From: a virus
Reading direction: 5' to 3' (one strand)
Length of the DNA stretch: 37,169 bases
Virus record (IMG/VR): IMGVR_UViG_3300021964_000007
Coordinates: 1 to 37,169 of that record
In this document: positions 1 through 34,992 of the stretch, one piece after another
Numbering within the stretch: position 1 is the stretch's first letter
Layout of the letters: the number at the start of each line of letters is the position of its first letter
Notes under the pieces: model-generated
What the model was told of the DNA's origin: nothing
What the model saw: the letters and a program-made list of their open reading frames with translations, nothing else
Databases searched by the model: none
Position numbers and translations under genes: made by a program

Positions 1-127
1 ACATCTGCTGATTGTGCAAACTGTAAATCAAATACTTGTGCTGATGTATATGGTGTTGCAATTTCGTAAACCTTTGCTGCAGTACCACCTGATGTATATG
101 TAGTATAGTTAGTAGAATCTACACCTG
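1..127. repeat. terminal overlap, left copy (contig circularity)
   Basis: Bases 1-127 are identical to 37043-37169. The repeat lies inside one open gene, the tail nozzle gene, and joining the ends keeps that gene in frame. This is what a circular assembly trimmed to one k-mer of overlap looks like. A physical direct terminal repeat is less likely because it would cut a structural gene. Confidence 0.95.
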
Positions 128-6671: not shown

Positions 6672-6941
6672 TTATGCTTTTTTATTTGCATTAGCAAATT
6701 TTTTTGCGGCTGCTTTACTACCAAAACCCCACTTTCTTAATGCTAATGCTAATCTTGTTGGTTTACCTTTCTTGTCTTTCATTGCTCCAGCCATACCCCC
6801 AAACCTAGCAGCAAAACTAATACGTCTAGGATTCTTACCTTTGCTAACTGCTGGTTTTAAATTAGAGCCATCTTTTCTTTTAAAGTATTTTCTGCCTGCT
6901 GGTGTAAGACCACCTGATTCGCTTTTATGTTCTTTTCTCAT
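6672..6941 (-). CDS. basic small phage protein (DUF6321-like)
   Basis: An 89-residue basic protein with GGLTPAGRKYFKRKDGSNLKP, then RRISFAARFGGMAGAMKDKKGKPTR, then LALRKWGF. This series resembles the DUF6321-type phage family, though the usual CxR cysteines are replaced by FAAR here. It is linked to the large terminase gene by an ATGA overlap. Function is unknown. It may bind DNA near the packaging motor, by charge and position. Confidence 0.75.
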   Translation of the reverse strand: MRKEHKSESGGLTPAGRKYFKRKDGSNLKPAVSKGKNPRRISFAARFGGMAGAMKDKKGKPTRLALALRKWGFGSKAAAKKFANANKKA

Positions 6942-8356
6942 GTGAATATACTAAACTCTGTTTCTGCTTCTATGTATTGTGGTTCAAAATTTTTAAGTCT
7001 TGCATGACGCAAAGACATAACACAATATCTCATTGCAGATATAACATCATCATTTATTGGAACTATCTTTCCGTCTTTACGATGATACATTCGCAATTCT
7101 TGTAATAGTTTATCTTGATTTCTAAAAATTTTCAATCGTTTTGTCTGCATACGAGTATACATTTCTTGTATACCAGCTTCTACTGAGTTACCACCTGTGC
7201 CTTCTCGTTGACCTCTTGATGGTGGATTAGAAAAATGATTACGTGTCATGTAAACACCTTCTGCTCTGTACTGCTCTGTAAGTGATTTACCAGAACCTTT
7301 ATCAGCTTGTCTACCATCCATAGGCCAGATTACAGGAATCCAAGTACCTCTTGCTTTAATTGCACTTGCGTGCATTGGTACAGCTTCTTGTCGCATAGCA
7401 TAAGTATCGTAAATATACACAATGTCCGCATCTCTATCCCATGCCAACCATACTGCAGCTGTCGGATGATTCCAACCAAAATCTATACCACATAATCTTG
7501 GCCAGTAAGTTGGTATTTCTATTGGGTCACATACTACATCATCTTCTGCTATAGGGAATACAAGACCAGAACCTAATTGTGGTATACCTTGTTCTCTCAT
7601 CTTTCTTTCGTGTGGTGGCAATGCAGAAAGTATCTGCTCTCTTACCTCTGGTGTCATATGCGGTGCATCATCCCATCCAGCTTGTAGTAAAGATTGACCA
7701 GGTCTAAGGTCGTTAACAAACTGTGCCACTGTTTCTGTCATACCAGATTCTGGTGTAAAGGTCATATATACCATGCCACCTCTGTCTGCAGTCCTTGTTA
7801 GTGCTTGAGAATAGATAGCAGCTGGTGGTTCTTCATCTAGCCATACAACATCTACAGCTTCTCCCATCCATTTTTCTCTACCCATCTCATATGCTTTAAA
7901 TGCTAACCTTGACCACCCCCCAGTTACGTGTTTAACAACCAAAGAATTATGTGCATTTGGCACACCTGGTTTTCTGGTAGTTTCTCCTATGTCTTGTAGC
8001 GGTATAGAGCCAGTTCCTTTAGCAGAGGGGTCATCTGGTTGCCCTACTAGCTCTTTTTGGCAGATATCTCTGGTAGTTTCGTTAGATGCACCACCTGCCC
8101 AGGCTCTGATTGGTTTAGTAAACTTACGACCCTCCCACCATTCTGGGTACTTACCAGTTAAATGGTAGGCCATTTCCATTGCACCACAAAAAGACTTACC
8201 TATTCTGTTACCAGCCATAAGTAATCTCTGAGATGCTACTGTATTATGGAACTTAATTTGGTATTCATACGGCTCATAGTGCTTTAATCTGTTAGTAAGC
8301 TTCCTATGCTCTAATTCTTTAGCAATTTCTACAGCCCTTTCCAGCGCATCACTCAT
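6938..8356 (-). CDS. terL: terminase large subunit (packaging ATPase/nuclease)
   Basis: A 472-residue packaging motor. The N-terminal ATPase shows a Walker A variant, AGNRIGKS (about residues 49-56), and a Walker B ending, VDVVWLDEEPP. The C-terminal nuclease domain shows GIDFGWNHPTAAVW (first acidic residue) and VIWPMDGRQAD, with a later acidic site in the VISAMRY helix region. Length and motif spacing match T7/P22-type large terminases. It follows the small subunit with 11 bp between and overlaps the next gene by 4 bases. It would translocate DNA into proheads through the portal. Confidence 0.95.
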   Translation of the reverse strand: MSDALERAVEIAKELEHRKLTNRLKHYEPYEYQIKFHNTVASQRLLMAGNRIGKSFCGAMEMAYHLTGKYPEWWEGRKFTKPIRAWAGGASNETTRDICQKELVGQPDDPSAKGTGSIPLQDIGETTRKPGVPNAHNSLVVKHVTGGWSRLAFKAYEMGREKWMGEAVDVVWLDEEPPAAIYSQALTRTADRGGMVYMTFTPESGMTETVAQFVNDLRPGQSLLQAGWDDAPHMTPEVREQILSALPPHERKMREQGIPQLGSGLVFPIAEDDVVCDPIEIPTYWPRLCGIDFGWNHPTAAVWLAWDRDADIVYIYDTYAMRQEAVPMHASAIKARGTWIPVIWPMDGRQADKGSGKSLTEQYRAEGVYMTRNHFSNPPSRGQREGTGGNSVEAGIQEMYTRMQTKRLKIFRNQDKLLQELRMYHRKDGKIVPINDDVISAMRYCVMSLRHARLKNFEPQYIEAETEFSIFT

Positions 8357-8367
8357 AAATCTTAACC

Positions 8368-8781
8368 TTAGTTAATATCTTCATCTTTTACTGCAGCTAG
8401 TTGCAAAGAACCCATTATATTTCTAAGTTCTGCTTGCAATTCCTCGTCAGTTTTTCTACCAGTTACATCTTCAATCTTAGTTGTAGTCTGATATCCAGTT
8501 CTATCCAAGATAGAATTGATTGCACCAAGCTTTGTACTTGCGTTAACTGCTGGGTCTACTACTAATTGTTGCAATTTTTCTATCGCAACTGGTACTGCAC
8601 CATTTAAAAGCTTTCTAGTAGCATCCTCAATCTCTGCAGAAAGCTTATTTTTAAGCTCATATCCCTGCTGTTGAGCCGTTGCTGGAGAGTAACCTGCCTT
8701 AATTGCAGCCTCTGTAGCATTACCTTTTTCGCTAAAGTGCCTAACGAACTCTTTTTGCTTGTCTGTCAATAGTTTTCTCAT
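8368..8781 (-). CDS. terS: terminase small subunit
   Basis: A 137-residue protein starting MRKLLTDKQKEFVRHF, followed by GNATEAAIKAGYSPATA, the DNA-binding helix-turn-helix of Terminase_2-type small subunits. The C-terminal part is helical and would form the ring. It recognises the packaging start site and feeds the large subunit encoded next. No Shine-Dalgarno sequence precedes the ATG at 8781, and a promoter-like pair ends only about 10 bp upstream, so the message may be nearly leaderless. Confidence 0.92.
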   Translation of the reverse strand: MRKLLTDKQKEFVRHFSEKGNATEAAIKAGYSPATAQQQGYELKNKLSAEIEDATRKLLNGAVPVAIEKLQQLVVDPAVNASTKLGAINSILDRTGYQTTTKIEDVTGRKTDEELQAELRNIMGSLQLAAVKDEDIN

Positions 8782-9249: not shown

Positions 9250-9453
9250 ATTCTTTACCTCCATTATCATGTTAACATATGTTAATATCTATGTAAATAG
9301 TATATTTTTAGTAAGTAGTTACTGTTTAATTACTAGTATATATTTAGTTAATAGTATCTTTTAAATACTGGTTTATTTTAAGTAAATAGTTGACTTAGGT
9401 TAATAGATTTGTTAATATAAATATGAGTAAAAAAAATAAGGGAGGTAGAAGAT
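9250..9453. promoter_or_regulatory. divergent early control region with palindrome and octamer sites
   Basis: A very AT-rich 204-bp region between a leftward and a rightward gene. It holds the 14-bp palindrome TTAACATATGTTAA (9272-9285) and octamers GTTAATAT at 9281-9288 and 9411-9418, with relatives GTTAATAGT at 9347-9355 and GTTAATAG at 9399-9406. The same octamer occurs in the other promoter regions. Likely operators for a phage regulator, by inference. Confidence 0.5.
9390..9418 (+). promoter_or_regulatory. rightward early promoter
   Basis: TTGACT (9390-9395), 17-bp spacer, TAATAT (9413-9418), about 35 bp before the first early gene with its AAGGGAGG ribosome site. Two GTTAATA-type octamers overlap the spacer and the -10, so a bound repressor would block it. 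Confidence 0.65.
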
Positions 9454-11869: not shown

Positions 11870-12220
11870 CTAAATGTTGTAAGCTTTTTTCTCTTGATTT
11901 TGGTTAAAAGATTGTACTTTAATTAACTCTAAGTTTATTTCTACACATCTCTTTTGCCATTTTAACTCAGCTTCAATCTGTGTAGCATCTGCAAGTGCTT
12001 TAATATGTGCTGTATATCGCTCATCTGCATATGCATGAGCTTCTTGTTGAGCTACACTATTTGGTTTGCCAGTTGGTCCGAGTTGATATTCTTTCATAAG
12101 ACTAGCTCTTAATATCTTTTTACTTTCTTCAAGTTGCACAAGATTCTTTAAAGCAACACTATGCTCATGACCTAACTTTCTAAGCTTGTTAATCTCAAAC
12201 TCTTTATGTACTTCGTTCAT
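11870..12220 (-). CDS. coiled-coil hypothetical protein in replication operon
   Basis: A 116-residue helical protein starting MNEVHKEFEINKLRKLG. ATG at 12220 is chosen because GGAGG lies 5 bases upstream. The sequence is rich in Leu/Lys/Glu with long charged helices, a pattern of a coiled coil. It overlaps the helicase gene end by 17 bases. Position in the replication unit suggests a helper of helicase or recombination, but no family is recognised. Confidence 0.68.
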   Translation of the reverse strand: MNEVHKEFEINKLRKLGHEHSVALKNLVQLEESKKILRASLMKEYQLGPTGKPNSVAQQEAHAYADERYTAHIKALADATQIEAELKWQKRCVEINLELIKVQSFNQNQEKKAYNI

Positions 12221-13727
12221 TGTTACCTCCAATCATATTTTGTATTTTAATTTTAGATTTGTGTCGTTTTATATTGTGATGTTTTATATACCCTTCAACA
12301 TCTTTTGTTGGTCTTACAGGCAGTATATTTTTTTTAAAATTAGGAAAGTGTTTAAATTTATTTTTAAACAAATGACTTGCCCATCCATCAAGATAGCCTC
12401 TTTGTCTTGCATAGAAAAGTAATCCTGCATAAAAAGTTTCTTTGTCTGCAACTGTTGGCTCGTTCTTTTTTTTCTTTAACTCAACAAGTCTGCCTTGTGC
12501 AATCAACAACTCAGTGTCTTTTTTAGTAGGTTTAGAGCCACAATTAGGACATTCTGGGCTGTCTGCAGTAGGTTTATATACAAAATCACATTGCACACAG
12601 GTAAATGGTTGTTTTTCTATTGGTTGTGGTTCTTTTCTTTCTTTACTAACATTAGTCGTTACATCTAATGTCCATTGAGGTGGCTCATCAGGAAAGCCAT
12701 GTTCATAAACAGCACCACTATGGTCTATAATTAATGTATCTTTCTTGCCATCATCTGGTCTAAGACTTCTACCTACCATCTGCAGATACAACCCATAACT
12801 TTTAGTAGGTCTTGCTAATATAACACAGGATATTTTAGGTTCATCCCATCCTTCTGTTAATACTTGACAGTTAGCTAAGACCTTAATCCTACCATCTTTT
12901 ATCATAGCTAATTGTCTTTCTCTTTCTATTTCTGGCATTTTACCATCTATGTGACCAGCAGGTATGCCACTGTCATTAAACATCTTAGCTATTTTTTTAC
13001 TATGGTTTATTGATGTAGCAAATGCAACAGTAGGTCTGTCTTGACCATACATTATCCAATGGTTTACAATGTCACCTATTAGTTTAGGTGTGTTCATTCT
13101 TTTGTCTAGCCTACCTTTTTCATAATCACCTGCTAATACTTTTAGTCCTTTTAAATCTGGCATTGTTGGTGCATAGATTCTACTAGGAACAAGATAGCCT
13201 TCTTCTGTCAAATCTTTTATATTGCTGCACTCTATAAGACCTTGATAGATATCACCTAATCCTTTACCATCTGCTCTACATGGTGTTGCAGTTAGACCTA
13301 TGACATGAGCTTCTGGATATTCTTCTATCATTTTTTGAAAAGTAAATGATGCAGACCTGTGTGCTTCATCAAAAATAATCAAATCTGCATCTGGTCTATC
13401 AAAATCAAAATTATCTTTTCTTGCAGTATAAGTTTGTATTGATACAACTTGCACATCAGCATCTGGTGTAGCTGCTTTGTCTGCCATTATGACACCATGT
13501 CTAACACCAAAATTAAAAAGCTTGTTACTACATTGCATAATTAATTCTCTTCTATGTGCAACAAAGACACACTTCTTACCATTCTCTATTACTTTGCGAA
13601 TAATATCTGCAGCAATCACAGTTTTACCAGAACCTGTTGGTGCAACTAACAGAACCTTTTTTCTTTTGGTAAATGATTCTCTTATATCATCTATTACTTT
13701 TGTTTGATAAGGACGTAACTGGTGCAT
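12204..13727 (-). CDS. DEAD/DEAH superfamily 2 DNA helicase
   Basis: A 507-residue helicase starting MHQLRPYQ. Motifs: Q-like LRPYQ, Walker A APTGSGKT (residues 29-36), DEAH box (LIIFDEAHRS), motif III LTATP, and motif VI QMVGRSLRP. A zinc ribbon follows at the C-terminus (CVQC...CPNC). The organisation is that of RecG/UvsW/SSL2-like phage helicases. Start 13727 has GGAG 6 bases upstream; an upstream in-frame ATG (13799) lies deep in the primase gene and is rejected. It would unwind DNA during replication or repair. It overlaps the primase gene by 41 bp. Confidence 0.9.
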   Translation of the reverse strand: MHQLRPYQTKVIDDIRESFTKRKKVLLVAPTGSGKTVIAADIIRKVIENGKKCVFVAHRRELIMQCSNKLFNFGVRHGVIMADKAATPDADVQVVSIQTYTARKDNFDFDRPDADLIIFDEAHRSASFTFQKMIEEYPEAHVIGLTATPCRADGKGLGDIYQGLIECSNIKDLTEEGYLVPSRIYAPTMPDLKGLKVLAGDYEKGRLDKRMNTPKLIGDIVNHWIMYGQDRPTVAFATSINHSKKIAKMFNDSGIPAGHIDGKMPEIERERQLAMIKDGRIKVLANCQVLTEGWDEPKISCVILARPTKSYGLYLQMVGRSLRPDDGKKDTLIIDHSGAVYEHGFPDEPPQWTLDVTTNVSKERKEPQPIEKQPFTCVQCDFVYKPTADSPECPNCGSKPTKKDTELLIAQGRLVELKKKKNEPTVADKETFYAGLLFYARQRGYLDGWASHLFKNKFKHFPNFKKNILPVRPTKDVEGYIKHHNIKRHKSKIKIQNMIGGNNERST

Positions 13728-14550
13728 ATCTACTCCATATATCGTTAAGTTGAAATATAGCTTCTTTAGGATTTTCTGGTGGATTACAAGCTCTTGCAAA
13801 CTCTAATGCCTCACCTCTTGCATACTCGTATGATTCACCACGAAGTCTTATGCCTATCAACATTCTAATTAATCGTTCATGCCTGTCGCCTTCTGATGCT
13901 CCATAGTTTGTACTGCCACTATATTTAGATTCATAACTTGTAAAATTTATTACTTTTGGTTTAGGTCTTTGTAATTTTAAACCATTTTTTATTTCTTCTT
14001 TGGTGTATGGTTTTATCTTATAAGTGCTAACAATTTTTATTGGATAAGGTTTGTTCTTGTTGTGAAAAAATCCAGCAACTCTCATCACTCTAGGTAAATC
14101 TTTTACTTTTTCATCCCCCCCAAATTTTTCTGCTAGTGCTTGTTGGTAAAGTGTAAAACTTTCCAGTGGCATATCTGACACTAACCAATAACAATGATAT
14201 TTATCTGGACTTGTGTTCACTATTAAGTGAGGGAGTAAAGTAAACTTTTCAGGTAAGGGAGAACCATCAAGGTCTACAAATACCGCCCTCACTTTTTTTA
14301 TGTGCTTTGTTGTTCTACCTAGGAGGTCTGTCTCATTGACAGTAAAGAACACACCTGCACCCTGTTTATTTAAATCAGCTAACTCATGGAAGTGTTGCTT
14401 TATTGTTCCATGTAGTTGTTTTATAACTTTTTTATTTTTACCTTTGTCACAAAAAGTTTGAAATGTATGTTCTGGTCCAAACATTTCTAAGAACTCGTAG
14501 TAGGTAGAGCAATTAGTGTAATAGGGTACTCCATTAAAACTATTACTCAT
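13687..14550 (-). CDS. RepB-type primase (AEP superfamily)
   Basis: A 287-residue protein matching phage/plasmid RepB_primase. It has a conserved acidic pair VFVDLDGSPLP (D93, D95), a KYHCYWLV His motif (H119) and LPRVMRVAGFFHNKNKP further along. These are the catalytic landmarks of the archaeo-eukaryotic primase fold. It would lay RNA primers at the origin. It overlaps the DUF1376 gene by 8 bp and the helicase gene by 41 bp, forming a compact primase-helicase unit. No polymerase domain is attached. Confidence 0.85.
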   Translation of the reverse strand: MSNSFNGVPYYTNCSTYYEFLEMFGPEHTFQTFCDKGKNKKVIKQLHGTIKQHFHELADLNKQGAGVFFTVNETDLLGRTTKHIKKVRAVFVDLDGSPLPEKFTLLPHLIVNTSPDKYHCYWLVSDMPLESFTLYQQALAEKFGGDEKVKDLPRVMRVAGFFHNKNKPYPIKIVSTYKIKPYTKEEIKNGLKLQRPKPKVINFTSYESKYSGSTNYGASEGDRHERLIRMLIGIRLRGESYEYARGEALEFARACNPPENPKEAIFQLNDIWSRYAPVTSLSNKSNR

Positions 14551-14905
14551 TGCTCCACCTTGCTATTGCACCCTTCTTGCCTGCTTTTGATTTTGCTTTT
14601 CTATATTTTTTTTGCACACTTCTTTCCTCATCTGCTTGTATGCAACGAAGATAGCCATTATCTTCTATAAACATTGGTGCTATCTTAGGCCACATTTTTT
14701 TTATTTTATCTAAACTACAATTACACATTCTTGCAAGGACTTCATAATCAAATTTTATTTGGTAACCTCTCCAGCAATGACACAACAATAAAATGTATGC
14801 ACCCTGTTCTTCTAACGACATCGTTAGCCTTAGAGGTTCACTAATCCAATCAGCAGCATAGAATTGAAAAGCTGGTGATTGCTCATGCTTTGTACTCTTT
14901 CTCAT
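14543..14905 (-). CDS. DUF1376 (YdaU-like) replication-associated protein
   Basis: A 120-residue protein with SPAFQFYAADWISEPLRLTMSLEEQGAYILLLCHCW, the hallmark of DUF1376/YdaU. Proteins of this family lie near phage replication genes and resemble initiator-type winged helix domains. The C-terminal basic segment (KKYRKAKSKAGKKGAIARW) may contact DNA. It is the first gene of the leftward replication operon, beneath a good promoter (14935-14962), with AAGGGAG before its ATG. An initiator role at the nearby origin is inference. Confidence 0.85.
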   Translation of the reverse strand: MRKSTKHEQSPAFQFYAADWISEPLRLTMSLEEQGAYILLLCHCWRGYQIKFDYEVLARMCNCSLDKIKKMWPKIAPMFIEDNGYLRCIQADEERSVQKKYRKAKSKAGKKGAIARWSNE

Positions 14906-14934: not shown

Positions 14935-14962
14935 ATAATACCAAAGTTAATATGCTTGTCAA
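14935..14962 (-). promoter_or_regulatory. promoter of the leftward replication operon
   Basis: Minus strand: TTGACA (14962-14957), 16-bp spacer, TATTAT (14940-14935). GTTAATAT octamers occur at 14929-14936 and 14946-14953 and overlap the -10 and spacer, so a bound regulator would block it. The transcript begins about 25 bp before the DUF1376 ATG. Confidence 0.7.
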
Positions 14963-15007
14963 ATACACTATACTACTAAGGTATATATATCTTGTAAGAA
15001 GATGTAA

Positions 15008-15031
15008 ACGAAGACGAAGACGAAGACGAAG
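15008..15031. repeat. four tandem ACGAAG hexamers
   Basis: ACGAAG repeats exactly four times without gaps, next to an AT-rich tract (TATATATATC) on the left and a palindrome on the right. No gene is read through it with any support. It is part of the candidate origin. Confidence 0.85.
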
Positions 15032-15038
15032 AGCTATA

Positions 15039-15055
15039 TTTTGCCATTGGCAAAA
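15039..15055. repeat. 17-bp perfect palindrome
   Basis: TTTTGCCA and TGGCAAAA are arms around a single central T. The arms are perfectly complementary. It could be a protein-binding site or a hairpin at the origin. It lies between the hexamer array and the 11-bp repeats. Confidence 0.85.
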
Positions 15056-15059
15056 GTAT

Positions 15060-15092
15060 GGCACTGCTATGGCACTGTTATAGCACTGCTAT
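15060..15092. repeat. three adjacent 11-bp repeats (iteron-like)
   Basis: GGCACTGCTAT (15060-15070), GGCACTGTTAT (15071-15081) and AGCACTGCTAT (15082-15092) are tandem with 1-2 mismatches. An 11-bp spacing places each copy on the same helix face, as for a bound initiator. The last copy merges into an extended -10 element. Confidence 0.85.
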
Positions 15093-15095
15093 AAT
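15087..15095 (+). promoter_or_regulatory. rightward extended -10 promoter at the origin
   Basis: TGCTATAAT is a perfect extended -10. The -35 hexamer is poor (CTATGG at 17 bp). Transcription would start near 15102 and run into the hairpin terminator at 15135-15197. Overlap with the 11-bp repeats suggests control by the same protein. Confidence 0.5.
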
Positions 15096-15101
15096 ATGTG
15101 T

Positions 15102-15197
15102 CATACGATTAGCTAGTGTTTATGCAGGTTAGAGGCGGAGAGCTTAGTGTAAAGGTTTTTATTGAGCTTATAATGCTCTCCGCTTTAATTTTTTTTT
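15102..15197 (+). ncRNA. candidate small RNA of about 95 nt
   Basis: Bounded by an extended -10 promoter (15087-15095) and an intrinsic terminator (15135-15197), with no gene reading inside. It ends antisense to the last codons of the HTH regulator gene. It could regulate that gene, or act as a replication primer at the origin. No homologue is recognised. Confidence 0.4.
15135..15197 (+). terminator. intrinsic terminator, rightward
   Basis: Perfect 9-bp stem GCGGAGAGC (15135-15143) with GCTCTCCGC (15175-15183), 31-nt loop, followed by TTTAATTTTTTTTT (15184-15197). The T-run exists only for rightward transcription; leftward reading leads into TCTAACC. The T-run encodes the terminal Lys-Lys-Asn codons and stop of the opposite-strand HTH gene. 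Confidence 0.7.
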
Positions 15198-15403
15198 GAA
15201 ATTTCGAAATTTAAATCAGGTCTAATATAATCAATGGCATAGTCACCTAACATAGCTATTTGATATGCTCTAAGTGCGGGTACTACTTCCCATTTAGATA
15301 CTGCTGGATGAGATATATTCAATAATTTTGATAAATTTCGTCCACCATATTTTGCCACTATTTCGTTTCGTCTTTGTTTTGCAAGTTCGTACTTTTCTTC
15401 CAT
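15185..15403 (-). CDS. YdaS/Cro-like helix-turn-helix regulator
   Basis: A 72-residue protein with helix-turn-helix around residues 22-42 (GGRNLSKLLNISHPAVSKWE) and the YdaS-like ending VPALRAYQIAMLGDYAIDYIRPDL. YdaS/Cro-type proteins bind operator DNA as dimers. It lies between two operons and beside divergent promoters. Its own promoter places the start of the message at about the ATG and no ribosome site is present, implying leaderless translation. It likely controls the GTTAATAT/TTAACAT sites. No integrase or second repressor gene is seen. Confidence 0.85.
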   Translation of the reverse strand: MEEKYELAKQRRNEIVAKYGGRNLSKLLNISHPAVSKWEVVPALRAYQIAMLGDYAIDYIRPDLNFEISKKN

Positions 15404-24659: not shown

Positions 24660-27600
24660 TTATCTTAAACTTTCTGGTATAAACTCATATTCCTCTTCTT
24701 TAGGTTTTGTAGTTTCTTTATTAGTATTTAGTTCTTTTTCTGCCTTTTCACGTTCTTTTTCTTTACTATAGTCCATATTATATCCTTTATTAGATTCTAT
24801 TATTCTTTCTAAAAAATACCTTCTTTTAGCTTTACTTTGGGCATTATAATATTTGTCTAAGAAATATGTGTAATTACCATTGTTATATAAACTATTTTTA
24901 ATCATAATTCTAAAGTTTGTATTGTTTTTGTTTTGTAGTAAATATACATCTAATTCGTTAGCTTCCTCTTCTGTTAAATCATTTCCAGAATATAACTTAT
25001 CTAACAATATTCTTTCATTTGCTCTATCTAAAGCTTTTGAATTATCATAATTTTTAATATCAGTTGATGCTTCTCTTTCTCCCATAACATTTCCTACTCT
25101 TAGAAATCTATTGATACCAGTCACTCTTCCAAAAATACTTTCTGTATATTTAGACACAGCACCTTCTGGTTTATCTTTTGTTTCGCCTATATCAGCTTTA
25201 AATGTTAACATTGTTGATGAAACATATTTGTTCCAAAAACTAGCAAGAGCTTGTTTGTAATATTCTTTATGAACTCTTCCTAAATCTAAAGGACCAACTA
25301 TAGATGCAAAAGGTCTATACTCACTTATATTTGGTTGAAACGCATTTTCTGATTTCATTCCTTTTATAACATCAGGGTCAATCATGCCTATACCATTAAA
25401 AGGATTTTCTATTTGGTCTTGCAGAACTATACTAATTAAATCACCAACCATTTCATATGCACCAGATTCTGATGGTACATTTCTTGTTACAACGTTTTTA
25501 AAATCTGTTCCACTTTCTGATGTAAGCCAATCTGAGTCACCTCTTGTAATAGGGGTATCTCTTTTTACACCCACAGCATCTTGTAAAGGAGCTAAAATAC
25601 TGTATCTTGCTTCTTTAATAACTGGAGAAATTAGATTTCTTAAAATTTCTGATTGAACAGAAACTGATGGTGATTTTCTAAAAGTAAAATATATAGGTCT
25701 ATATGCATTAAATCCTAACGCTGCTGTTTCAGTTGTATTTACTTGCTCTTTTCCAATAGGTACAATCCAATAAAATATATCATCGTATTTTTTAACAGCT
25801 TTCATCATTTTTTCTACTTCTTCGCCCATAAAACCAAATAGTCCAAGCGCTCTTAGTAATTCAAATGTTGCTGCATATTTCCAAGTTGCTTGCCAAAAAT
25901 TTCTTTTGTACCATTTTTGTCTAGGGTCTTCTTGCCTAGACCTTTTTTCACTTTTACCTACTGCATAAAAACCAGCTACTGTAGCTCTATAAAAAAGAAA
26001 CGGTATTTCTAATAGAGGATTTCCTCCCTGTGTAAAATCAACAATTTGTCGTCTTACTAGTTGTGCTATTTGTCTTTGTGATTGATTTAACTTGCCTGCT
26101 TGTTTTTGATTTATTTTATAACGAGCCACCGCATTTCTAGTTACAAACTCTGTTGCTTTACCAATTTGACTTAAAACATTCCATGCTGCAGTAAACTGTT
26201 GTGCAGAACGAGTAACAGGGTCTTTGATAAAATCTACATAATCTTTAGGGTCTTTTGTTAAATCTTCTATATCTTTAACAACTTCTTTAGGTAATGCATC
26301 TGTATAAGTTTGTGCAAAATTACTTCTATCTTTTCTAGCAAGAACAACAGCAGATTGATACATCCATTTACTTATTGCATCTAAATTTTCTTGTTTAGCA
26401 TAAAGATATCTAGATTGTTTTATTGATTCTACCATTGCAGTAACAAGACTATATCCAAAAGATACATCTCGTCCAAAAACAGTCATTAATCTTTTTTGGT
26501 CAGGTGGCAACCCATCTTTCCATTTTTTTATTGATAAATTTACTAATTTAACATCTGTATTTTGTAACACAGTTCCTACGTCCATCATTATGTTTGTCCA
26601 CCAAAACGCAGGGTTTGCACCTGTATAACCTTGTTTTACTAAACTAACACTGCTTAACACAAATTTGGAAATTAATTTAAGTTCAATAGGGTCTAATGAC
26701 ATAAATTCATTTACCCAACGATATTCAGGTCTAGAATATCCTGCTCTATCTATTTCATTTGTTTCTACTGTTATTGTTCTTCTACCAATACGTATTTTAC
26801 GTGATACTCTAGGTAGCATTGGCGCTCCTTCTAATACATAACCTTTTTTTTCCATTTCTTTTCTATTTTTTATTTCTGCTCTTGGATTAAAGTCTTCATA
26901 GCTAATTCTAATTTCTGGCCTTACAATTCCAAATTGTTTCTTTGAATAAAAACCTATAGGCACTCTTTTTCTTTTAGGAGCTTTTTTATATTTTTCGTAA
27001 AACTCAGCTAGTTCTTCATTTTTTTCTGCAACTAATTCAACATATTCTTCCTTAGTTAATTCCTCTCTTGTTATTACATCAACTATTTTGCGAACATCTC
27101 CACTGCCTTTACCAGAATAAATTGCATACCTACTCATTCCAGATACTACAAATCTTTTAGTTTGCTCTACTACTTTTCCTTTATATTCTACTGGCACTGC
27201 TGATGGTCGAGCTAATTTTTCTTTAAATAATTTTTTAGAAAATTTTCGTACAAACTCTATGTGTTCACGTGTGTTTTTAGGATTGTGTTCATTATATTCT
27301 TTTAATTCTTCTTTTGTAAGACCACTAGTATCAAAAGGTATAGTCATGCTATGCCATGAATCATAATATTGAAACACATCTGCATATTGTATAAAAAATC
27401 CTGCTGTGTTATCTAATGCTTTCCACATATCTATATCTTCTTTGTAATTTATAGAAGATGTAGGAATACGTTCTGACATATATTCTCCATCAATAGGTTT
27501 TCCTATCATTGAAAGAAGTGCTTGATTACGTTTTTCTCTTGCACCAATAACAGATAATTTTTGTACTGTTGCAAAAACAGGGTCTAAAGGTGTATTAAAA

Positions 27601-30600
27601 AAACCTTCGTGAAAAGCTGTGTCAAGTTTACTACCACCAAAACTTCCAGTATAATCATGACCAGCTATTGCATCATATATTTTATCTACTGGTTTTAATG
27701 TAGCATAAAATTTTATAGGTGCTTTTTCTATAAACATATCATATTGTTCTCTAGTTATAGATTCAGTTGCACCATGACTAAAAGCATTTCTCATAAATTC
27801 ACGATTTTGTGTATAAAAAACTTCCGCAATCTTATTTAATTCTGGATAGTTTTCATCAAAATGTGTTTTCAAATCTTCTATAGTTCTAAATTGATTTATA
27901 TATTTTTCTAAACCTTTTAAAACATTTAATTTTTCTTTAGCTTGTTGTAATTCATATTCTGCATCTTCTTTATTTTCGAGAGCTTCTACTTGTTCTTGAG
28001 CTTTTTCTAAGTTTACAAAATATTCATCTTCTGATATTAACTTATAAGGAGATTCAATATCTTTTTCTCCAGTTTTTTTAAGAGAGTGTAATCTGTTAGC
28101 TATTATAAGGACAGAAAAATAATCATAGGGTTTACCTTTTTCTGCAAGATATTCTTTTGCAGGATTAACTACATTGTTTAACGTGTCCATTTGATATGCT
28201 TCGGCAGTTGACCCAAACATTTTGTAATCATCTATTTTAGCCTGTACTCTTTCTGCTTCACTAAGTCCTACATAACGACCAGTAGGTTTTCCTGTTGGTG
28301 AAAGTTCAGTATTTTTCCAACTTGCTATACCATTTGTTAAAGATGGTCTATAACTATCTGTTCTTGCATTTATGTAAGCTTCTTTTGATACAAAAATTTG
28401 TTTTGCTAAATCTATAAAATTGTTGCTTAATGGGTCTAATATTAATGATTTTGTTCTTTTGCTAAGTCTTGATATAGCATTGTCAGATTCTTTTTTAATA
28501 TCGTCAGCCATAAATTTAATAGCAGCATCTGCTCTAGCATTAGTTCCTGCATTTAATTGATTTAATATTTCTGTATAAATCTTTTTAAAAGCTGGTCGTT
28601 CGTCCATAAAATTATGGAATAATTCTAGAGCATTAGGCGCTCTATCTTTAACAAGTTCTGGATGTGCTAAAAGTGCGCTCATAAAGTCAGCATACATTTC
28701 TGCACTATTACGTCTATATGATAACTCTTCAGCGTCAAACGCATTTAAATATTTTTCATAATTAGTTAGATTTGCTGTTGTCTCTGCTCCTGGTGCTGCT
28801 GCAATCTTTTTTTTGACTTTCTCTATTTCTTTTGCAATTTCTTTTTCATTCATTTTAATTATTTTCATAAAAGATTCTTTAGTTACTTTTACATATCCCA
28901 TTTTCGAACGAGTAATGTTTGTAAACATAGTAACAGGTCTTATAATTAAACTTATATCTGCAATTTCATTTGTAATTTGTTCTAATGTAACCATTCCTCT
29001 GCGATTCATTTCTCTTTGCACAGCTTCTGCAAATCTTTTTTTAGCTTGTGCTGCAAAATCAGGTTTTGTTATTTCTACATCATTTATTAAATCAACTATT
29101 ACTTTTAAATCATCATGTATAATGCCTTTCATTGCTTGTTTAATAATTTCTTTTTTTAATGCTTCATCAGCTCTTGCTATTTTGTCATATAATTCAGGTG
29201 GTAAAAAATCTCTTGCATTAGTTTTATTCCAAACAGATAAAATGTCTTTTGGTGTAATTTGAAGACCCATAGCATCAATTTCTTTTTGCCATTCTTTTTC
29301 AGCTATTTTTGCATCTGCTAGTGCTTCTTCATATAATGCATCTAAAATTGTTTTATCTAATACTCCTTTTATTTCTCCAGTTTTTTTGTTAATAGCATTA
29401 TATATAAAACCTTTTGCTTTTGTTAAATTACCAATAATATTTCCTGTACCAAAAAGTTTGTATAAAGCATCAGCATCCATTCTTTCTATTGCTTTAAATC
29501 CTTCTTCCCATTTAGCTGCTCTATTTCTAAATTCTTCTACTGTAAAATCAAACGGCAAATCAATAGCTTTTGCTCCTCCGAAAGTTGTTTCAACTCCATA
29601 AGCTTTGATAAACTCCCCCCAACTTTCGTACCCATAACTACTTGGTGTAAAACCATCTGCATTTCCTTGTTCCATGTGACCTATTTCGTGAAAAGCTGTA
29701 ATAGCTTGACTTATAGTGTAAGCAAAACCAGGCAATTGTTTTCCAATAAATCCACCTATCTTTTCAGTTGACTCTCCAGTGCCAAATTTTAAAGCACTTA
29801 CATGTTTTATAGGACTTATGTTTACAGTGTTATCAGTAGGGTCATAATGACCATAAGACCCAGTTGGTATGTTTTGTATTTTTTTACCAGTAACAGCTAA
29901 AACTATCATAGATGCATCTATATAGTCTAACCCTGTTTTTTGATTATATATAGAATTTACTGTTTTTTCATCAAATACTGATTCAATTAAAACATGAGGT
30001 TCATGTGGTGTTCCACCATTTTTTAAACCTGTATCTTTAATAATTATAGCTTCATCATCTCTTTTATATTCTTTTTTAGCTTTTTCTATTAATTGTGCAT
30101 AACGTGCTACATTTAAAGGTTTTACACTAGCTAGAACCTTACCATCTTTGTCTATAAAAATTAAACGACCAATTTCTTGCACATCTGTACTATACATAAA
30201 CTCTCTTACATCATTTAAATCCATTCCTCTTTTAGGATGAAATACCATAGATGGTTTGTCATACTCCTCATCACCTTTTAAATTTTTAGGATTTGACAAT
30301 ATTTTGTATAATTTTGACGGCAATCCAACATACATATCTGCTGTTTTAAAAATAGCAATTGAACCTGTGTCAACATTTAAATTTAATTCTTGAAACTGAT
30401 TTTTTTTTGAATTAAAAATATTTGATATTACCTGGTTGTGTTGGTCAATAGTTGTTTCAAAGCTTGTACCAAATACTTTTGTTTTATCGTATTCAGTATC
30501 TTGTTTCCAATATTTTAAATTTTTTTCAACATCAGGTACAGGCATAATTCCTGATTCTGCAATATACTCATTAAATTCTGGATAATCTTTTGCTAGCAAT

Positions 30601-32903
30601 AAAACTGTGTCAGTCGTAGTTCCATAATGTCTTACTACTTCTTCTAATGCATTTTTTACAAACGATAAAGAATAATTTCGTTGTAAATTAGGTCTTTCAT
30701 TATTAAATGACAATTTTTCTGTGTCTGTTTGATTTATCTTATATTCACGTGGTTCAGATTCTAGTATGTTTTCATACTTTTGTTTTTCTTCATTATATCT
30801 AAGATTTGAATCTACATTATCTTTCAAAACATTTTCTGCTAATTCAATATTTTTTGCACCAGAAGGACTTTCAGTTTCTAACAAGATTGTTCCGTTTTGT
30901 TCTTTTTCGTTTACAACTTTACTATTGCCTGTAATTTCTTCATTAATTTTAAATTTTTTAGGAATTATTACATTTACACCTTTCTTAAGTTTCATGTATA
31001 AATCAAAAGTATTTTCACCAGCAACAGTAGCTGGGTCTTTATATCCAGTTTTTAAGAAATCATTTGCAAGTGTTCCTTCTTTAAAATGGTCATCTCTTAT
31101 TTTATTTGTTTCAAACATTGATTTAAAATTACGAAATGCATATTTAGAAAGACCTACAGCACCAACAAATGCACTTGCAGAAAGATAATTGTCTTGAAAA
31201 TTAAATTCACCTGTATGGTAATAATCTAAAACAGACATACCTGTTCCTAATCCAAATATAGAACCTGCAGCTTCTGTTTTTCCTAAAGCTCCACCCCACA
31301 TTAAAAAATTATTTTTGTTGTAATTTTTTGCTATTTGATTTGCTAACAATTGACTATTGGCTCGTCTAAACATTATTGCACTACCTGCAGTTACTGAACC
31401 TAAAACTGCTGAATCCATATATACTTGCAATGCTTCATTAGACCACAAATAATCATTTAATTGTTCTAAGTTGTTTATTTTTTGACCATCTCTAAGAGCA
31501 GCAAGTATTGGTTGGTGCATAAGTTCTGGTCCTACAAAACTACCAGCTCCACCTATAATTGATTGAATTAAAGGCATTTTTGTAAAACTTGTGCCTGCAG
31601 CAAAAAGTCTGCCGAATCCAGAATATGTTGGATAATTAAGTCCGAAAGTAACAAGTTCATGCATAAAAGAATTAAAACCATTGCTACGACTTTGATGAAT
31701 TGAATCAGCAACAGCAATTCTATTCATTGCTTCATCTTTACTCATATAGCCAAAATGAAATCTTGCATAATCTATGCCTCTTCCAATGTAACTATGATTT
31801 AAACTACCATTTCCTAAGATAGCATTATAACCTTGGCCACCAAAAAAGTTTTTAACTCTATCTGCATAAGGCTCTAAAAAAGTATTTTGTACTGAATAAT
31901 CAGTATCACTAAAATATGGTAAATCAAAACCAACAGGTACTACGTTATCGTTTTGTTCTAATAGTTTTGCAAATTCTTCAACTTTTTGTTTATTGTCATT
32001 TACATAAATTCTGTAATAATCTAACATGACTTCTTTGTTACCTTTAGCTATTCCTAATCTCATTTTGGCAGGCACACTATTATATATTGCTGTTTGCAAT
32101 TCTATTTCTTGAGCTGGACTTAATCTTGTTGGATTATTGTGTTTTAATGCATCTAACACCCAAAATGGAACAGGGTCATTATCTCTATCATATTGTCTTT
32201 GCAACAAAGTTAATGCACCACGAAAACTATTAGGTGCAGTAATTTCATTTTTTGTATCATATCCGAAAGCTCCACCTCTATTTTTATCTGCATCATATTT
32301 CATAGTAGTGTTGCTTTCATTAGAAGCTATACGGCTAAGTAGATAGTGCAAATTATCTTTGTTTTCTTGTGTAAAATCAGGGTATCGTGAAAACAAATAA
32401 TCATAAACAGGTTTACCTATATCATAATCATATAAGCCAATATTATTTGTTCCTAAATAATCTGCTATATTTGTGCCGTCAGGATTTATTAAATTTTGTT
32501 GTAACAAATCTGGGGTTTTAAAGGGTTTTTGTTTTTGTAAATTTAGCAAACCATCTGTAGCTAATTTAGTAAAATTCTTATCATTTGTATAAAGCTTTTC
32601 GTAATAATTATTAAATGATTTTGCTTTTTCGTCTATTAATTGTGACAATATTTCAGGATTGTTTTTGCTATTTTCGTATTCATTTTTTGTAAGATTAAAT
32701 TTATTATCAAAAGCAAACATTAAAGAAGGTATAAGTTCTTTATCTCTAGGATAAACACCATCATAAACATTTATATCATGTTCACTAAATCCTTGTTTTT
32801 TTAAAAGAGTATTACGGTTTCCTATAATACTATCTACTGTTTTTACATCGTAACCAGCTTGCATCAATTCTGTTCTTGTAGGTATAGTGTTATTCAACGC
32901 CAT
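24660..32903 (-). CDS. giant ejection protein with lytic-transglycosylase-like and HExxH regions
   Basis: About 2747 residues, 22% of the genome. Start at ATG 32903 rather than GTG 32924, which is poorly supported. Landmarks: near residue 195 a transglycosylase-like RIASNES...GGAFGYD (putative catalytic Glu); near 1072 an AFHEIGHMEQG zinc-protease motif; hydrophobic/Gly-rich segments around residues 410-560; and near 2095 NPAFWWTN with later FYRATVAGF, as in LPD38-type large polyvalent phage proteins. It replaces T7 gp16, which digests peptidoglycan and conducts DNA. The protease role is inference. It follows the gp15-like gene. Confidence 0.82.
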   Translation of the reverse strand: MALNNTIPTRTELMQAGYDVKTVDSIIGNRNTLLKKQGFSEHDINVYDGVYPRDKELIPSLMFAFDNKFNLTKNEYENSKNNPEILSQLIDEKAKSFNNYYEKLYTNDKNFTKLATDGLLNLQKQKPFKTPDLLQQNLINPDGTNIADYLGTNNIGLYDYDIGKPVYDYLFSRYPDFTQENKDNLHYLLSRIASNESNTTMKYDADKNRGGAFGYDTKNEITAPNSFRGALTLLQRQYDRDNDPVPFWVLDALKHNNPTRLSPAQEIELQTAIYNSVPAKMRLGIAKGNKEVMLDYYRIYVNDNKQKVEEFAKLLEQNDNVVPVGFDLPYFSDTDYSVQNTFLEPYADRVKNFFGGQGYNAILGNGSLNHSYIGRGIDYARFHFGYMSKDEAMNRIAVADSIHQSRSNGFNSFMHELVTFGLNYPTYSGFGRLFAAGTSFTKMPLIQSIIGGAGSFVGPELMHQPILAALRDGQKINNLEQLNDYLWSNEALQVYMDSAVLGSVTAGSAIMFRRANSQLLANQIAKNYNKNNFLMWGGALGKTEAAGSIFGLGTGMSVLDYYHTGEFNFQDNYLSASAFVGAVGLSKYAFRNFKSMFETNKIRDDHFKEGTLANDFLKTGYKDPATVAGENTFDLYMKLKKGVNVIIPKKFKINEEITGNSKVVNEKEQNGTILLETESPSGAKNIELAENVLKDNVDSNLRYNEEKQKYENILESEPREYKINQTDTEKLSFNNERPNLQRNYSLSFVKNALEEVVRHYGTTTDTVLLLAKDYPEFNEYIAESGIMPVPDVEKNLKYWKQDTEYDKTKVFGTSFETTIDQHNQVISNIFNSKKNQFQELNLNVDTGSIAIFKTADMYVGLPSKLYKILSNPKNLKGDEEYDKPSMVFHPKRGMDLNDVREFMYSTDVQEIGRLIFIDKDGKVLASVKPLNVARYAQLIEKAKKEYKRDDEAIIIKDTGLKNGGTPHEPHVLIESVFDEKTVNSIYNQKTGLDYIDASMIVLAVTGKKIQNIPTGSYGHYDPTDNTVNISPIKHVSALKFGTGESTEKIGGFIGKQLPGFAYTISQAITAFHEIGHMEQGNADGFTPSSYGYESWGEFIKAYGVETTFGGAKAIDLPFDFTVEEFRNRAAKWEEGFKAIERMDADALYKLFGTGNIIGNLTKAKGFIYNAINKKTGEIKGVLDKTILDALYEEALADAKIAEKEWQKEIDAMGLQITPKDILSVWNKTNARDFLPPELYDKIARADEALKKEIIKQAMKGIIHDDLKVIVDLINDVEITKPDFAAQAKKRFAEAVQREMNRRGMVTLEQITNEIADISLIIRPVTMFTNITRSKMGYVKVTKESFMKIIKMNEKEIAKEIEKVKKKIAAAPGAETTANLTNYEKYLNAFDAEELSYRRNSAEMYADFMSALLAHPELVKDRAPNALELFHNFMDERPAFKKIYTEILNQLNAGTNARADAAIKFMADDIKKESDNAISRLSKRTKSLILDPLSNNFIDLAKQIFVSKEAYINARTDSYRPSLTNGIASWKNTELSPTGKPTGRYVGLSEAERVQAKIDDYKMFGSTAEAYQMDTLNNVVNPAKEYLAEKGKPYDYFSVLIIANRLHSLKKTGEKDIESPYKLISEDEYFVNLEKAQEQVEALENKEDAEYELQQAKEKLNVLKGLEKYINQFRTIEDLKTHFDENYPELNKIAEVFYTQNREFMRNAFSHGATESITREQYDMFIEKAPIKFYATLKPVDKIYDAIAGHDYTGSFGGSKLDTAFHEGFFNTPLDPVFATVQKLSVIGAREKRNQALLSMIGKPIDGEYMSERIPTSSINYKEDIDMWKALDNTAGFFIQYADVFQYYDSWHSMTIPFDTSGLTKEELKEYNEHNPKNTREHIEFVRKFSKKLFKEKLARPSAVPVEYKGKVVEQTKRFVVSGMSRYAIYSGKGSGDVRKIVDVITREELTKEEYVELVAEKNEELAEFYEKYKKAPKRKRVPIGFYSKKQFGIVRPEIRISYEDFNPRAEIKNRKEMEKKGYVLEGAPMLPRVSRKIRIGRRTITVETNEIDRAGYSRPEYRWVNEFMSLDPIELKLISKFVLSSVSLVKQGYTGANPAFWWTNIMMDVGTVLQNTDVKLVNLSIKKWKDGLPPDQKRLMTVFGRDVSFGYSLVTAMVESIKQSRYLYAKQENLDAISKWMYQSAVVLARKDRSNFAQTYTDALPKEVVKDIEDLTKDPKDYVDFIKDPVTRSAQQFTAAWNVLSQIGKATEFVTRNAVARYKINQKQAGKLNQSQRQIAQLVRRQIVDFTQGGNPLLEIPFLFYRATVAGFYAVGKSEKRSRQEDPRQKWYKRNFWQATWKYAATFELLRALGLFGFMGEEVEKMMKAVKKYDDIFYWIVPIGKEQVNTTETAALGFNAYRPIYFTFRKSPSVSVQSEILRNLISPVIKEARYSILAPLQDAVGVKRDTPITRGDSDWLTSESGTDFKNVVTRNVPSESGAYEMVGDLISIVLQDQIENPFNGIGMIDPDVIKGMKSENAFQPNISEYRPFASIVGPLDLGRVHKEYYKQALASFWNKYVSSTMLTFKADIGETKDKPEGAVSKYTESIFGRVTGINRFLRVGNVMGEREASTDIKNYDNSKALDRANERILLDKLYSGNDLTEEEANELDVYLLQNKNNTNFRIMIKNSLYNNGNYTYFLDKYYNAQSKAKRRYFLERIIESNKGYNMDYSKEKEREKAEKELNTNKETTKPKEEEYEFIPESLR

Positions 32904-34992
32904 ATTTTTCTTTATCCTGTTCACTCATTTTATTTTTGTGTATATTTATAGCTTCTTTTTTTACGTCTGTAACTCTATCACTTTTATCTTCTTCTTGTTT
33001 TTGTATTGGTTTTTGACCAGGTACTTTATAAATTTCTGTTGCAACAGCTTTAACATTTGCATCATCAAAACCTAAAGCTTGACCTAATTTTGTAAATTCT
33101 TTAGGAGTTAAATTTAATCTTGCATTTTTAGCCAATTTGTATAAGTCTTGTCTTTTACTATATTCAACAATAGATTCATATACAGGATATTCTACAATTG
33201 TTCCATCAGGTTGTGTTTGCTGACTAGTTCCTATTGTCCTTCTTTCTCTCCATTGGTTATCAAACTCAGTATTTGCAATATCAAGTTTTTTAGAAAAATA
33301 ATATCCAAGAGCTTGCGCATCTGAAAGATATGCAGGATTTCCATTTACTACTACTAAGTTTTGATTTTGTGTTAGTTCGTTTTTAATATCTTGGACAATG
33401 TTAGCTCTGCTTTTAGCATTGTCAACTCCTTTAGTATATGCATCACTTTTAACAAAATTTACAATATCTTTTACTAAATTTCCTGTGCTTTCACCACCTA
33501 CGTTTAATTTGTTAGAAAGAATTTCATCCATAGTAAATCCTTGTTTCATTCCTGCTTCTATTGTTTCTAAATAAATTTGTATAGCATCTCCTGCTTTTTG
33601 ATTATATTTAGAACTCATAGATTCTTTCATGCTTTCTAATGCAATTAGTCTAGATTGGCCTTGCATTTTTGAAGTAGTTATTACATCAATCATTTCTTGT
33701 GAACCATTTAATTCAGTTAATAAAATTTTTAAATTGTTTTTAAGAACAACATCGTTTATCGTTTTATCTAAAAGTTCTTTTTTGCTTTTACCAGCAGAAA
33801 TTATTTCTGTTGCATGTGCTTTTGTAAGCATATCCATATCTACATAATCTAAAACTTTATCGTGAAAATAATCATCGTATAAACCTTGATTTGCAGAATC
33901 TAACAATAATCTATAAAGTTTTATTGACCTTTCAGTTTCTGCAACTTCATTTTTAACAAGCTTATCATATTTAGCTCTCTCTTCTAAAGGCAAGTCATTC
34001 ATTGCATCATCAATTTCTTGACTAATTCTTTTCATATCGTCATATGATTCTGCTTTGTCGTATTGGTCTATCAAATCAGGAATAATTTTTTTTGCCTGAT
34101 TTACTTTAAATTTTCCTTGTTTTTCAGTAGCTTTATTGTAAGCATCTAATTCTTCTGTGATATCGTCTATCATATTTTTAACAACAGGATTGTCTGGTGA
34201 TAATTTTTCTTTTGTATCTAATGTTGTTATACCATTAGTTTCTAATTCTTCTATCATTTTTAACAAACTTATTCCTTCATCCATTCTATCGTTGATAAGA
34301 GATTCAGAAACATTTTCTAGCTTTAATTCTTCTCGCATTTTTGTTTTTATGTTTAAACTTAATAATGCTTTATTAGCTTCATATCTATTATTTTCTAGCA
34401 ATTTATCAAATTCTTCTGCTGACAAACTGTTTTTCATAGCATTTAAATCAATAATAAAACTTTGAAAGTCAGCATTAATACCACCTGCTGTTGATTTTTC
34501 ATTATATCTTTTTCTATAACTAGGTACAGTTTCATTTATAAATAAATCTTTATTTTTTGTTTGTTGCAATGATGATGTAATATCTCTTATTTCATCATAT
34601 ACTAAACGTGATTCCCACATTAATTCACCTTGCACTTCTGCCATTGTTTGTGAGTGATATTTTTTTGTAGAATCTTTTAAAAACTTATTTACTCTTTTTT
34701 CATATATTCCTTGATATTCATTTGGATTTAAAGTTCCTAAAGTTTTAGCTTTTAAATCCTCTTTATATTGGTCATTTAAATTATAAAATTCTGTTTTTGC
34801 TTGTAATTTTTCACCATCTATTCTAACTCTATTTTGCTTGCTAAGTTTTATATTATATTGTTGTCCTAAGACATCAGCTATTTTTTGACCAAGTTGTCCT
34901 ATGCCTGCAGTAAATGCTCCAGGGTCACCTGATTGTATACCTATACCACTTTGTATTGGTAAGTATTGTTTCTGTAATTTAGGTACTTTCAT
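32890..34992 (-). CDS. internal virion/ejection protein, T7 gp15-like
   Basis: A 700-residue, helix-rich, Lys/Asp/Glu/Asn-rich protein. The front (MKVPKLQKQYLPIQSG, ITAGIGQLGQKIADV-type) and the middle coiled regions fit the second core protein of T7-like phages (gp15), which forms the ejection tube. It lies between the gp14-like and giant genes in the usual order 14-15-16. Its 3' end overlaps the giant gene. No enzyme motif is visible. Confidence 0.8.
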   Translation of the reverse strand: MKVPKLQKQYLPIQSGIGIQSGDPGAFTAGIGQLGQKIADVLGQQYNIKLSKQNRVRIDGEKLQAKTEFYNLNDQYKEDLKAKTLGTLNPNEYQGIYEKRVNKFLKDSTKKYHSQTMAEVQGELMWESRLVYDEIRDITSSLQQTKNKDLFINETVPSYRKRYNEKSTAGGINADFQSFIIDLNAMKNSLSAEEFDKLLENNRYEANKALLSLNIKTKMREELKLENVSESLINDRMDEGISLLKMIEELETNGITTLDTKEKLSPDNPVVKNMIDDITEELDAYNKATEKQGKFKVNQAKKIIPDLIDQYDKAESYDDMKRISQEIDDAMNDLPLEERAKYDKLVKNEVAETERSIKLYRLLLDSANQGLYDDYFHDKVLDYVDMDMLTKAHATEIISAGKSKKELLDKTINDVVLKNNLKILLTELNGSQEMIDVITTSKMQGQSRLIALESMKESMSSKYNQKAGDAIQIYLETIEAGMKQGFTMDEILSNKLNVGGESTGNLVKDIVNFVKSDAYTKGVDNAKSRANIVQDIKNELTQNQNLVVVNGNPAYLSDAQALGYYFSKKLDIANTEFDNQWRERRTIGTSQQTQPDGTIVEYPVYESIVEYSKRQDLYKLAKNARLNLTPKEFTKLGQALGFDDANVKAVATEIYKVPGQKPIQKQEEDKSDRVTDVKKEAINIHKNKMSEQDKEKYGVE

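What the first reader, a model, noticed from the sequence alone, without database searches (positions are those of the whole stretch)
14970..15100. Candidate replication origin with hexamer array, palindrome and iteron-like repeats
Seen: four ACGAAG hexamers (15008-15031), a 17-bp palindrome (15039-15055), three adjacent 11-bp repeats (15060-15092), beside an AT-rich stretch TATATATATC. Known: origins of plasmids and phages often use iterons plus an AT-rich unwinding zone, and DUF1376 and RepB primase genes lie directly to the left. Inference: this is where the phage initiator, possibly the DUF1376 protein, starts replication.
Basis: partly seen in the sequence, partly recalled or inferred. 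Interest (0 to 1): 0.7.

Follow-up and report, generated by a model that had tools for sequence, protein, structure and literature searches.

The report
Conserved pelagiphage replication origin with hexamer array
Between a Cro-like gene and the replication genes, a group of marine phages related to a Pelagibacter phage carries a fixed set of repeats that looks like a replication origin, including an unusual six-base tandem array whose letters change between lineages while the six-base rhythm and one-strand bias usually stay.

Summary
Comparison with IMG/VR relatives shows they are one conserved composite element, always between a P22-Cro-like gene and the DUF1376 / RepB'-type primase / helicase operon. 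118 of 119 unique intergenic regions have it. A blind scan of IMG/VR for an array pattern gave 74 hits: 70 lie at this locus and 4 are coding-sequence matches. Array length changes mostly in steps of 6. One clade uses a different hexamer (ATACNN) with the same period; another has GTAA repeats. A Cro operator, a Cro-leader/rut site and a peptide are disfavoured. Best reading: the phage's iteron-type origin. The DUF1376 winged-helix protein is the likely iteron binder, and the array is the likely strand-specific opening or loading element, analogous to DnaA-trios. Origin function and binding are inferred; nothing was tested experimentally.

The parts
15185..15403 (-). Cro-like repressor gene, 72 aa
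   Evidence: PF14549 P22_Cro E 1.8e-11; same gene upstream of the element in relatives
15135..15183 (.). hairpin (9-bp perfect stem GCGGAGAGC) at the 3' end of cro; several relatives have a terminator-like hairpin in this place
   Evidence: (I4), folding z about -3, sequences
15083..15093 (-). iteron 1, TATAGCAGTGC, itself semi-palindromic
15072..15082 (-). iteron 2, TATAACAGTGC
15061..15071 (-). iteron 3, CATAGCAGTGC
15050..15060 (-). iteron 4, CATACTTTTGC, left half of the palindrome in operon sense
15039..15049 (-). inverted half-iteron CAATGGCAAAA; with iteron 4 it makes the 17-bp palindrome 15039-15055
   Evidence: positions -13 and -12 nearly invariant in 118 sequences
15032..15038 (-). 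spacer TATAGCT, TATCCC in many relatives; distance to the array nearly fixed
14996..15031 (-). period-6 array CTTCGT x4, TTACAT, CTTCTT; consensus in relatives (CTNCAN)n, about 3% G on this strand
14987..14994 (-). CAAGATAT, conserved right-hand end (CAAGATAG in most relatives)
14935..14962 (-). sigma-70-like promoter TTGACA-N16-TATTAT of the replication operon, beside GTTAA half-sites
14543..14905 (-). DUF1376 winged-helix protein, 120 aa, proposed initiator
   Evidence: PF07120, at its cut-off; PHROG primosomal protein; AF2 model and fold matches
13687..14550 (-). RepB'-type AEP primase, 287 aa
   Evidence: PF16793; RSF1010 RepB' 3H20 by profile E 0.0045 and by Foldseek E 3e-9
12204..13799 (-). 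SF2-type DNA helicase
   Evidence: phrog_16 E 3e-109

Best explanation
The element at 14987-15093 is the phage's replication origin. SHOWN by sequence: 11-bp iterons capped by an inverted half-copy, a nearly fixed spacer, a strand-asymmetric period-6 array and a CAAGAT end, conserved between cro and the replication operon. INFERRED: a phage initiator, most likely the DUF1376 winged-helix protein made by the first gene of the operon, binds the iterons side by side on one face of the helix (11 bp is about one turn), orients a complex towards the array, and helps open it. INFERRED, less sure: one strand of the array is then held in unit steps (3 or 6 nt), as DnaA holds DnaA-trios, so that the helicase and RepB'-type primase are loaded on a defined strand. 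The promoter right after the array lets transcription feed initiator synthesis and perhaps helps opening.
For: 118 of 119 unique cro-to-DUF1376 intergenic regions carry array plus CAAGAT. In 46 representatives (<85% identity) the array matches itself at lag 6 in 78% of positions against 17-25% at lags not a multiple of 3; the iteron region matches at lag 11 in 48%. Two or more TGYYA copies in 11-bp register in 40 of 46; three or more in 20 of 46 against 0 of 920 shuffles. Palindrome-to-CAAGAT distance is the same modulo 6 in 74 of 90 measurable regions. A scan of IMG/VR with one array pattern: 70 of 74 hits lie after cro, with DUF1376 following wherever the contig is long enough; 4 are coding matches. 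No array match elsewhere in 0.89 Mb of strand-bases of 80 loci. Genes downstream: DUF1376 winged helix, whose best fold matches are plasmid RepA_N initiator domains (Z 6.6-7.0) and which also matches DnaD NTD (Z 5.8), and a RepB' primase relative. RepA_N iterons are also semi-palindromic direct repeats (PMC7145576).
Against: No binding, opening or replication data exist. Winged helices are common and Z is below 8. All loci were found through shared genes or shared DNA patterns, so some conservation is common descent. The array is not easier to melt than its flanks; the weakest DNA lies 30-60 nt beyond it. One clade has GTAA repeats instead. Two other DUF1376 phages showed no comparable iterons. 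GC skew gives no independent support.
Confidence: 0.8

Rival explanations
1. Operator region: the palindrome and repeats are binding sites of the Cro-like repressor that control the replication operon.
For: A Cro-like gene is adjacent, and 17 bp is a common operator length (own knowledge). A promoter follows the array in all 46 representatives.
Against: TGCYAT occurs at 55 per kb in the iterons but 3.0 per kb at the cro promoter, whereas GTTAA half-sites are at 14 and 25 per kb at the cro and replication promoters and 3.8 per kb in the iterons. So a shared operator, if Cro's, is GTTAA. An operator does not explain the period-6 array or its fixed position.
Confidence: 0.07
2. RNA element in the Cro leader or read-through transcript: a C-rich, G-poor rut/antitermination site.
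For: The array is G-depleted (3%) and C-rich (37%) on the operon strand, as Rho sites are (own knowledge); terminator-like hairpins often lie just upstream.
Against: In L023, L237, L273 and L053 an ORF of 138-160 aa on the opposite strand lies between cro and the element. Iterons are DNA-type repeats in helical phase. The strict 6-nt step is not expected of a rut site.
Confidence: 0.05
3. Transcription-control platform of the replication operon (activator binding 11-bp direct repeats, as OmpR-family proteins do) rather than an origin.
For: 11-bp direct repeats and a downstream promoter in all 46 representatives.
Against: In class B no TTGACA-like promoter is visible in the roughly 30 nt between CAAGAT and DUF1376, yet the element is intact. 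The distance from CAAGAT to the promoter varies. An activator does not account for the array.
Confidence: 0.08
4. Packaging (pac/cos) site with tandem repeats.
For: Tandem hexamers occur in the P1 pac site (own knowledge).
Against: The terminase genes, identified here from their sequence by eye only, lie at 6938-8781, over 6 kb away, while the element is tied to cro and the replication genes in all loci.
Confidence: 0.03
5. Small peptide: the array encodes a Ser/Thr/Pro-rich peptide starting at the palindrome's ATG (MAK...).
For: An ATG at the palindrome in 25 of 46 representatives, open past the array in 22; annotated as the start of a gene in Baldr (L026:2798).
Against: Absent in 21 of 46; in that frame the variable array positions 3 and 6 are first codon positions.
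Confidence: 0.02

Closest known systems
DnaA-box + DnaA-trio unwinding module of bacterial oriC (B. subtilis) and the DnaD recognition element (PMC10201434, PMC10316083)
   Same: double-stranded binding sites at a fixed distance from a strand-asymmetric repeating element with 3-nt periodicity
   Different: 11-bp iterons instead of DnaA boxes; the unit is 6 nt (CTN CAN) and not the trio consensus; its sequence changed between lineages; no DnaA or other AAA+ initiator was identified among the genes examined
RSF1010 oriV with RepB' primase and RepC iterons
   Same: iterons beside a RepB'-type primase and a helicase; 3H20 is the top Foldseek match of the primase model
   Different: iterons are 11 bp; no conserved ssi hairpin; no RepC homologue identified among the genes examined; DUF1376 replaces it
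RepA_N initiators and iterons (pSK41, pTZ2162, PLE RepA; PMC5703833, PMC7145576)
   Same: winged-helix domain and semi-palindromic direct iterons
   Different: iterons outside the initiator gene (in pSK41 they are inside it); fold match only, no sequence match
Lambdoid early region cro - replication genes (own knowledge)
   Same: Cro-like gene, then an origin-linked initiator, then other replication genes
   Different: origin lies between cro and the initiator gene, not inside the initiator gene; primase instead of a helicase loader
V. cholerae ori2: RctB with ATCA repeats of the single-stranded DUE (PMC10316083)
   Same: non-AAA+ initiator with short repeats held as single strands
   Different: different unit, different initiator family

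Membership tests
iteron-type replication origin | several direct repeats in fixed register | tested here: met
   lag-11 match 48%; >=3 in-register TGYYA copies in 20 of 46 representatives, 0 of 920 shuffles
iteron-type replication origin | adjacent to the initiator/replication genes | tested here: met
   element lies between cro and the DUF1376/primase/helicase operon in 70 of 74 blind pattern hits; the other 4 are coding matches
iteron-type replication origin | AT-rich opening region beside the iterons | tested here: inconclusive
   array not weaker than flanks; weakest DNA 30-60 nt beyond it, in the promoter
iteron-type replication origin | initiator binds iterons and the fragment replicates | not testable with these tools
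   needs experiments
DnaA-trio element | repeated 3'-[G/A]A[T/A]-5' trinucleotides | tested here: not met
   array is CTN CAN, or ATACNN in one clade; only alternate triplets resemble it
DnaA-trio element | DnaA boxes at fixed distance | tested here: not met
   flanking sites are TGCYAT iterons; TATCCCC in many is not conserved in the rest
RSF1010-type origin | RepB'-family primase | tested here: met
   PF16793; 3H20/3H25 by profile and fold; D93, D95, H119, D151 invariant in 30 proteins
RSF1010-type origin | ssi hairpin start sites | tested here: not met
   the palindrome is a hairpin candidate in the window, but its right arm is changed to GCGATT in 21 of 118 sequences
RepA_N initiators | RepA_N winged-helix fold | tested here: inconclusive
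   top fold matches, Z 6.6-7.0, but Z below 8 and no sequence match
Cro operator | site shared with the repressor's own promoter | tested here: not met
   TGCYAT not enriched at cro promoters; GTTAA is

The most novel reading that the evidence does not exclude
The array is a new class of origin element: a strand-specific six-nucleotide tandem track, read in unit steps as single-stranded DNA by a phage winged-helix initiator or RepB'-type primase without an AAA+ initiator, in which period and strand bias matter more than the letters, so lineages can swap the unit (CTNCAN to ATACNN).
Probability: 0.35. Interest if true: 0.78.

Novelty: new variant of a known kind. Interest (0 to 1): 0.6.

Why it matters
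Related phages are common in marine viral contigs, one cultured relative infects Pelagibacter, and no description of their origin was found in the literature searched. If right, the locus can be picked out by pattern in metagenomes and gives a compact, testable system for a general question: how an initiator without ATPase passes from binding double-stranded iterons to holding one strand.

Tried and rejected
GC skew as an origin marker: turns coincide with gene orientation. Rfam: two matches, both below the gathering score. Relatives in 84,980 bacterial and archaeal genomes: one weak partial DUF1376 match, so no host or prophage comparison. Iterons in other DUF1376 phages (Acetobacter phiAX1, Rhizobium RHph_TM3_3_3): only short two- or three-copy repeats. 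The 16-base palindrome pattern alone is not specific: 65 of 120 hits were counted as away from cro/DUF1376 and lacking the CTNCAN array (seven of these proved to be class B loci). Literature searches for pelagiphage origins, DUF1376 replication, hexamer repeats and EXVC032P gave nothing direct. DUF1376 sequence profile against the PDB: no credible match. Simple slippage as the source of the array: would give identical units, whereas variation is confined to positions 3 and 6 in class A and mainly 5 and 6 in class B (inference; the class A unit counts were taken with a pattern that fixes the other positions).

Full report
WHAT IS THERE. The window is an IMG/VR virus record of 37,169 bp with a 127-bp terminal direct repeat. 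Read on the minus strand, the sense of the replication operon, the order is: cro-like gene (15403 to 15185); a hairpin; iterons TATAGCAGTGC, TATAACAGTGC, CATAGCAGTGC, CATACTTTTGC (15093 to 15050); an inverted half-copy CAATGGCAAAA (15049 to 15039); TATAGCT; CTTCGT x4, TTACAT, CTTCTT (15031 to 14996); CAAGATAT; a promoter TTGACA-N16-TATTAT (14962 to 14935); DUF1376, primase, helicase. The 17-bp palindrome is therefore the meeting of the last iteron with an inverted copy. Shuffling supports the period-6 and period-11 repeats; the palindrome alone would be unremarkable.

RELATIVES. The closest cultured phage is Pelagibacter phage EXVC032P Baldr (primase 58%, DUF1376 64% identity). Relatives were collected from IMG/VR by primase, DUF1376 and DNA patterns. 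Of 119 unique cro-to-DUF1376 regions, 118 hold the array with CAAGAT. Among 46 representatives below 85% identity the array self-matches at lag 6 in 78% of positions, and the iteron region at lag 11 in 48%; the array strand has about 3% G and 37% C; a promoter scoring at least 9 of 12 begins within 150 nt after it in all 46. At least two TGYYA copies in an 11-bp register occur in 40 of 46 and three or more in 20 of 46, against 38 of 920 and 0 of 920 shuffles. Unit counts range from 2 to 8, mostly 7; with a pattern that fixes C1, T2 and C4, position 5 is nearly always A and position 6 is almost never G. The palindrome-to-CAAGAT distance is equal modulo 6 in 74 of 90 measurable regions, so the array grows and shrinks by whole units.

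SPECIFICITY OF PLACE. A scan of all IMG/VR for TATCCCCTTCANCTNCANCTNCA returned 74 stretches. Seventy lie a few hundred bases after cro, with DUF1376 following wherever the contig runs on; the other four are coding sequence, three of them copies of one gene. In 80 DUF1376 loci no array match was found anywhere else (0.89 Mb of strand-bases). In some phages genes are inserted between cro and the element, with an ORF of 138-160 aa on the opposite strand, or between the element and DUF1376, so the element is a unit of its own and not part of a leader.

TWO OTHER ARRAY TYPES. Seven loci keep the iterons, palindrome, spacing and CAAGAT but carry ATACNN units with the same period 6 and hardly any G. 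Two have GTAA repeats. On a DUF1376 tree both types are single clades inside the common type (short alignment, but the tree's strongly supported branches force two changes). So the letters were replaced at least once while period, strand bias and place were kept. This is the most unusual observation.

PROTEINS. The DUF1376 model is a winged helix (mean pLDDT 81). Best PDB matches are N-terminal domains of plasmid RepA_N initiators (4pql, 5kbj, 4pt7, 4pta; Z 6.6-7.0), with DnaD NTD at 5.8; winged helices are common, so this is suggestive only. The primase is related to RSF1010 RepB' by profile and fold and keeps D93, D95, H119 and D151, the residues expected of an AEP active site.

HOW IT MIGHT WORK. 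Shown: anatomy, conservation, place. Inferred: DUF1376 binds the iterons along one face of the helix and points the complex at the array; the array or the weaker DNA just beyond it opens; one array strand is held in steps; helicase and primase enter. The array is not weaker than its surroundings by nearest-neighbour energy, which argues against a plain AT-rich unwinding zone and for recognition of a strand pattern. Known parallels are DnaA-trios and the DnaD element opposite them (PMC10201434), and RctB with ATCA repeats (PMC10316083).

ALTERNATIVES. Cro operator: disfavoured by motif distribution. Cro-leader RNA element: disfavoured by the opposite-strand inserts. Activator platform: possible in part. 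Packaging site: wrong place. Peptide: the ATG at the palindrome is absent in 21 of 46 representatives and the variable array positions would be first codon positions; in Baldr the annotated gene start at L026:2798 is probably an over-call of this kind (inference).

LIMITS. No experiment is available. All loci belong to one gene family, and literature coverage is restricted to open papers.

Noticed in passing
window 1-127 and 37043-37169: 127-bp identical ends, consistent with an assembled circular or circularly permuted genome.
   Followed up: no
window 9270-9453: AT-rich imperfect repeats (periods 18 and 35) between opposed genes, with GTTAAC/GTTAATA sites and TTGACTTAGGTTAATAG, like the GTTAA-bearing promoters of cro and the replication operon; a possible third Cro-controlled promoter or packaging-linked region near terminase.
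   Followed up: partly
L251, L275 (contigs of L006, L005): Primase and helicase genes lie in the opposite orientation and reversed order behind DUF1376, as if that cassette was inverted, while the origin element stays in place.
   Followed up: no
L086/L363, L366: In this lineage the hexamer array is replaced by GTAA/GAAA repeats on a C-poor strand, with many GCAATGCGAT-type iterons.
   Followed up: partly
L026:2798-3169 (Baldr EXVC031PHodr_035): The annotated gene start is the ATG inside the origin palindrome, so the annotated N-terminus would be the array read as protein; the true start is probably downstream.
   Followed up: partly
window 24660-32924: A single 2754-aa open frame on the minus strand, with smaller frames following; function not examined.
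   Followed up: no
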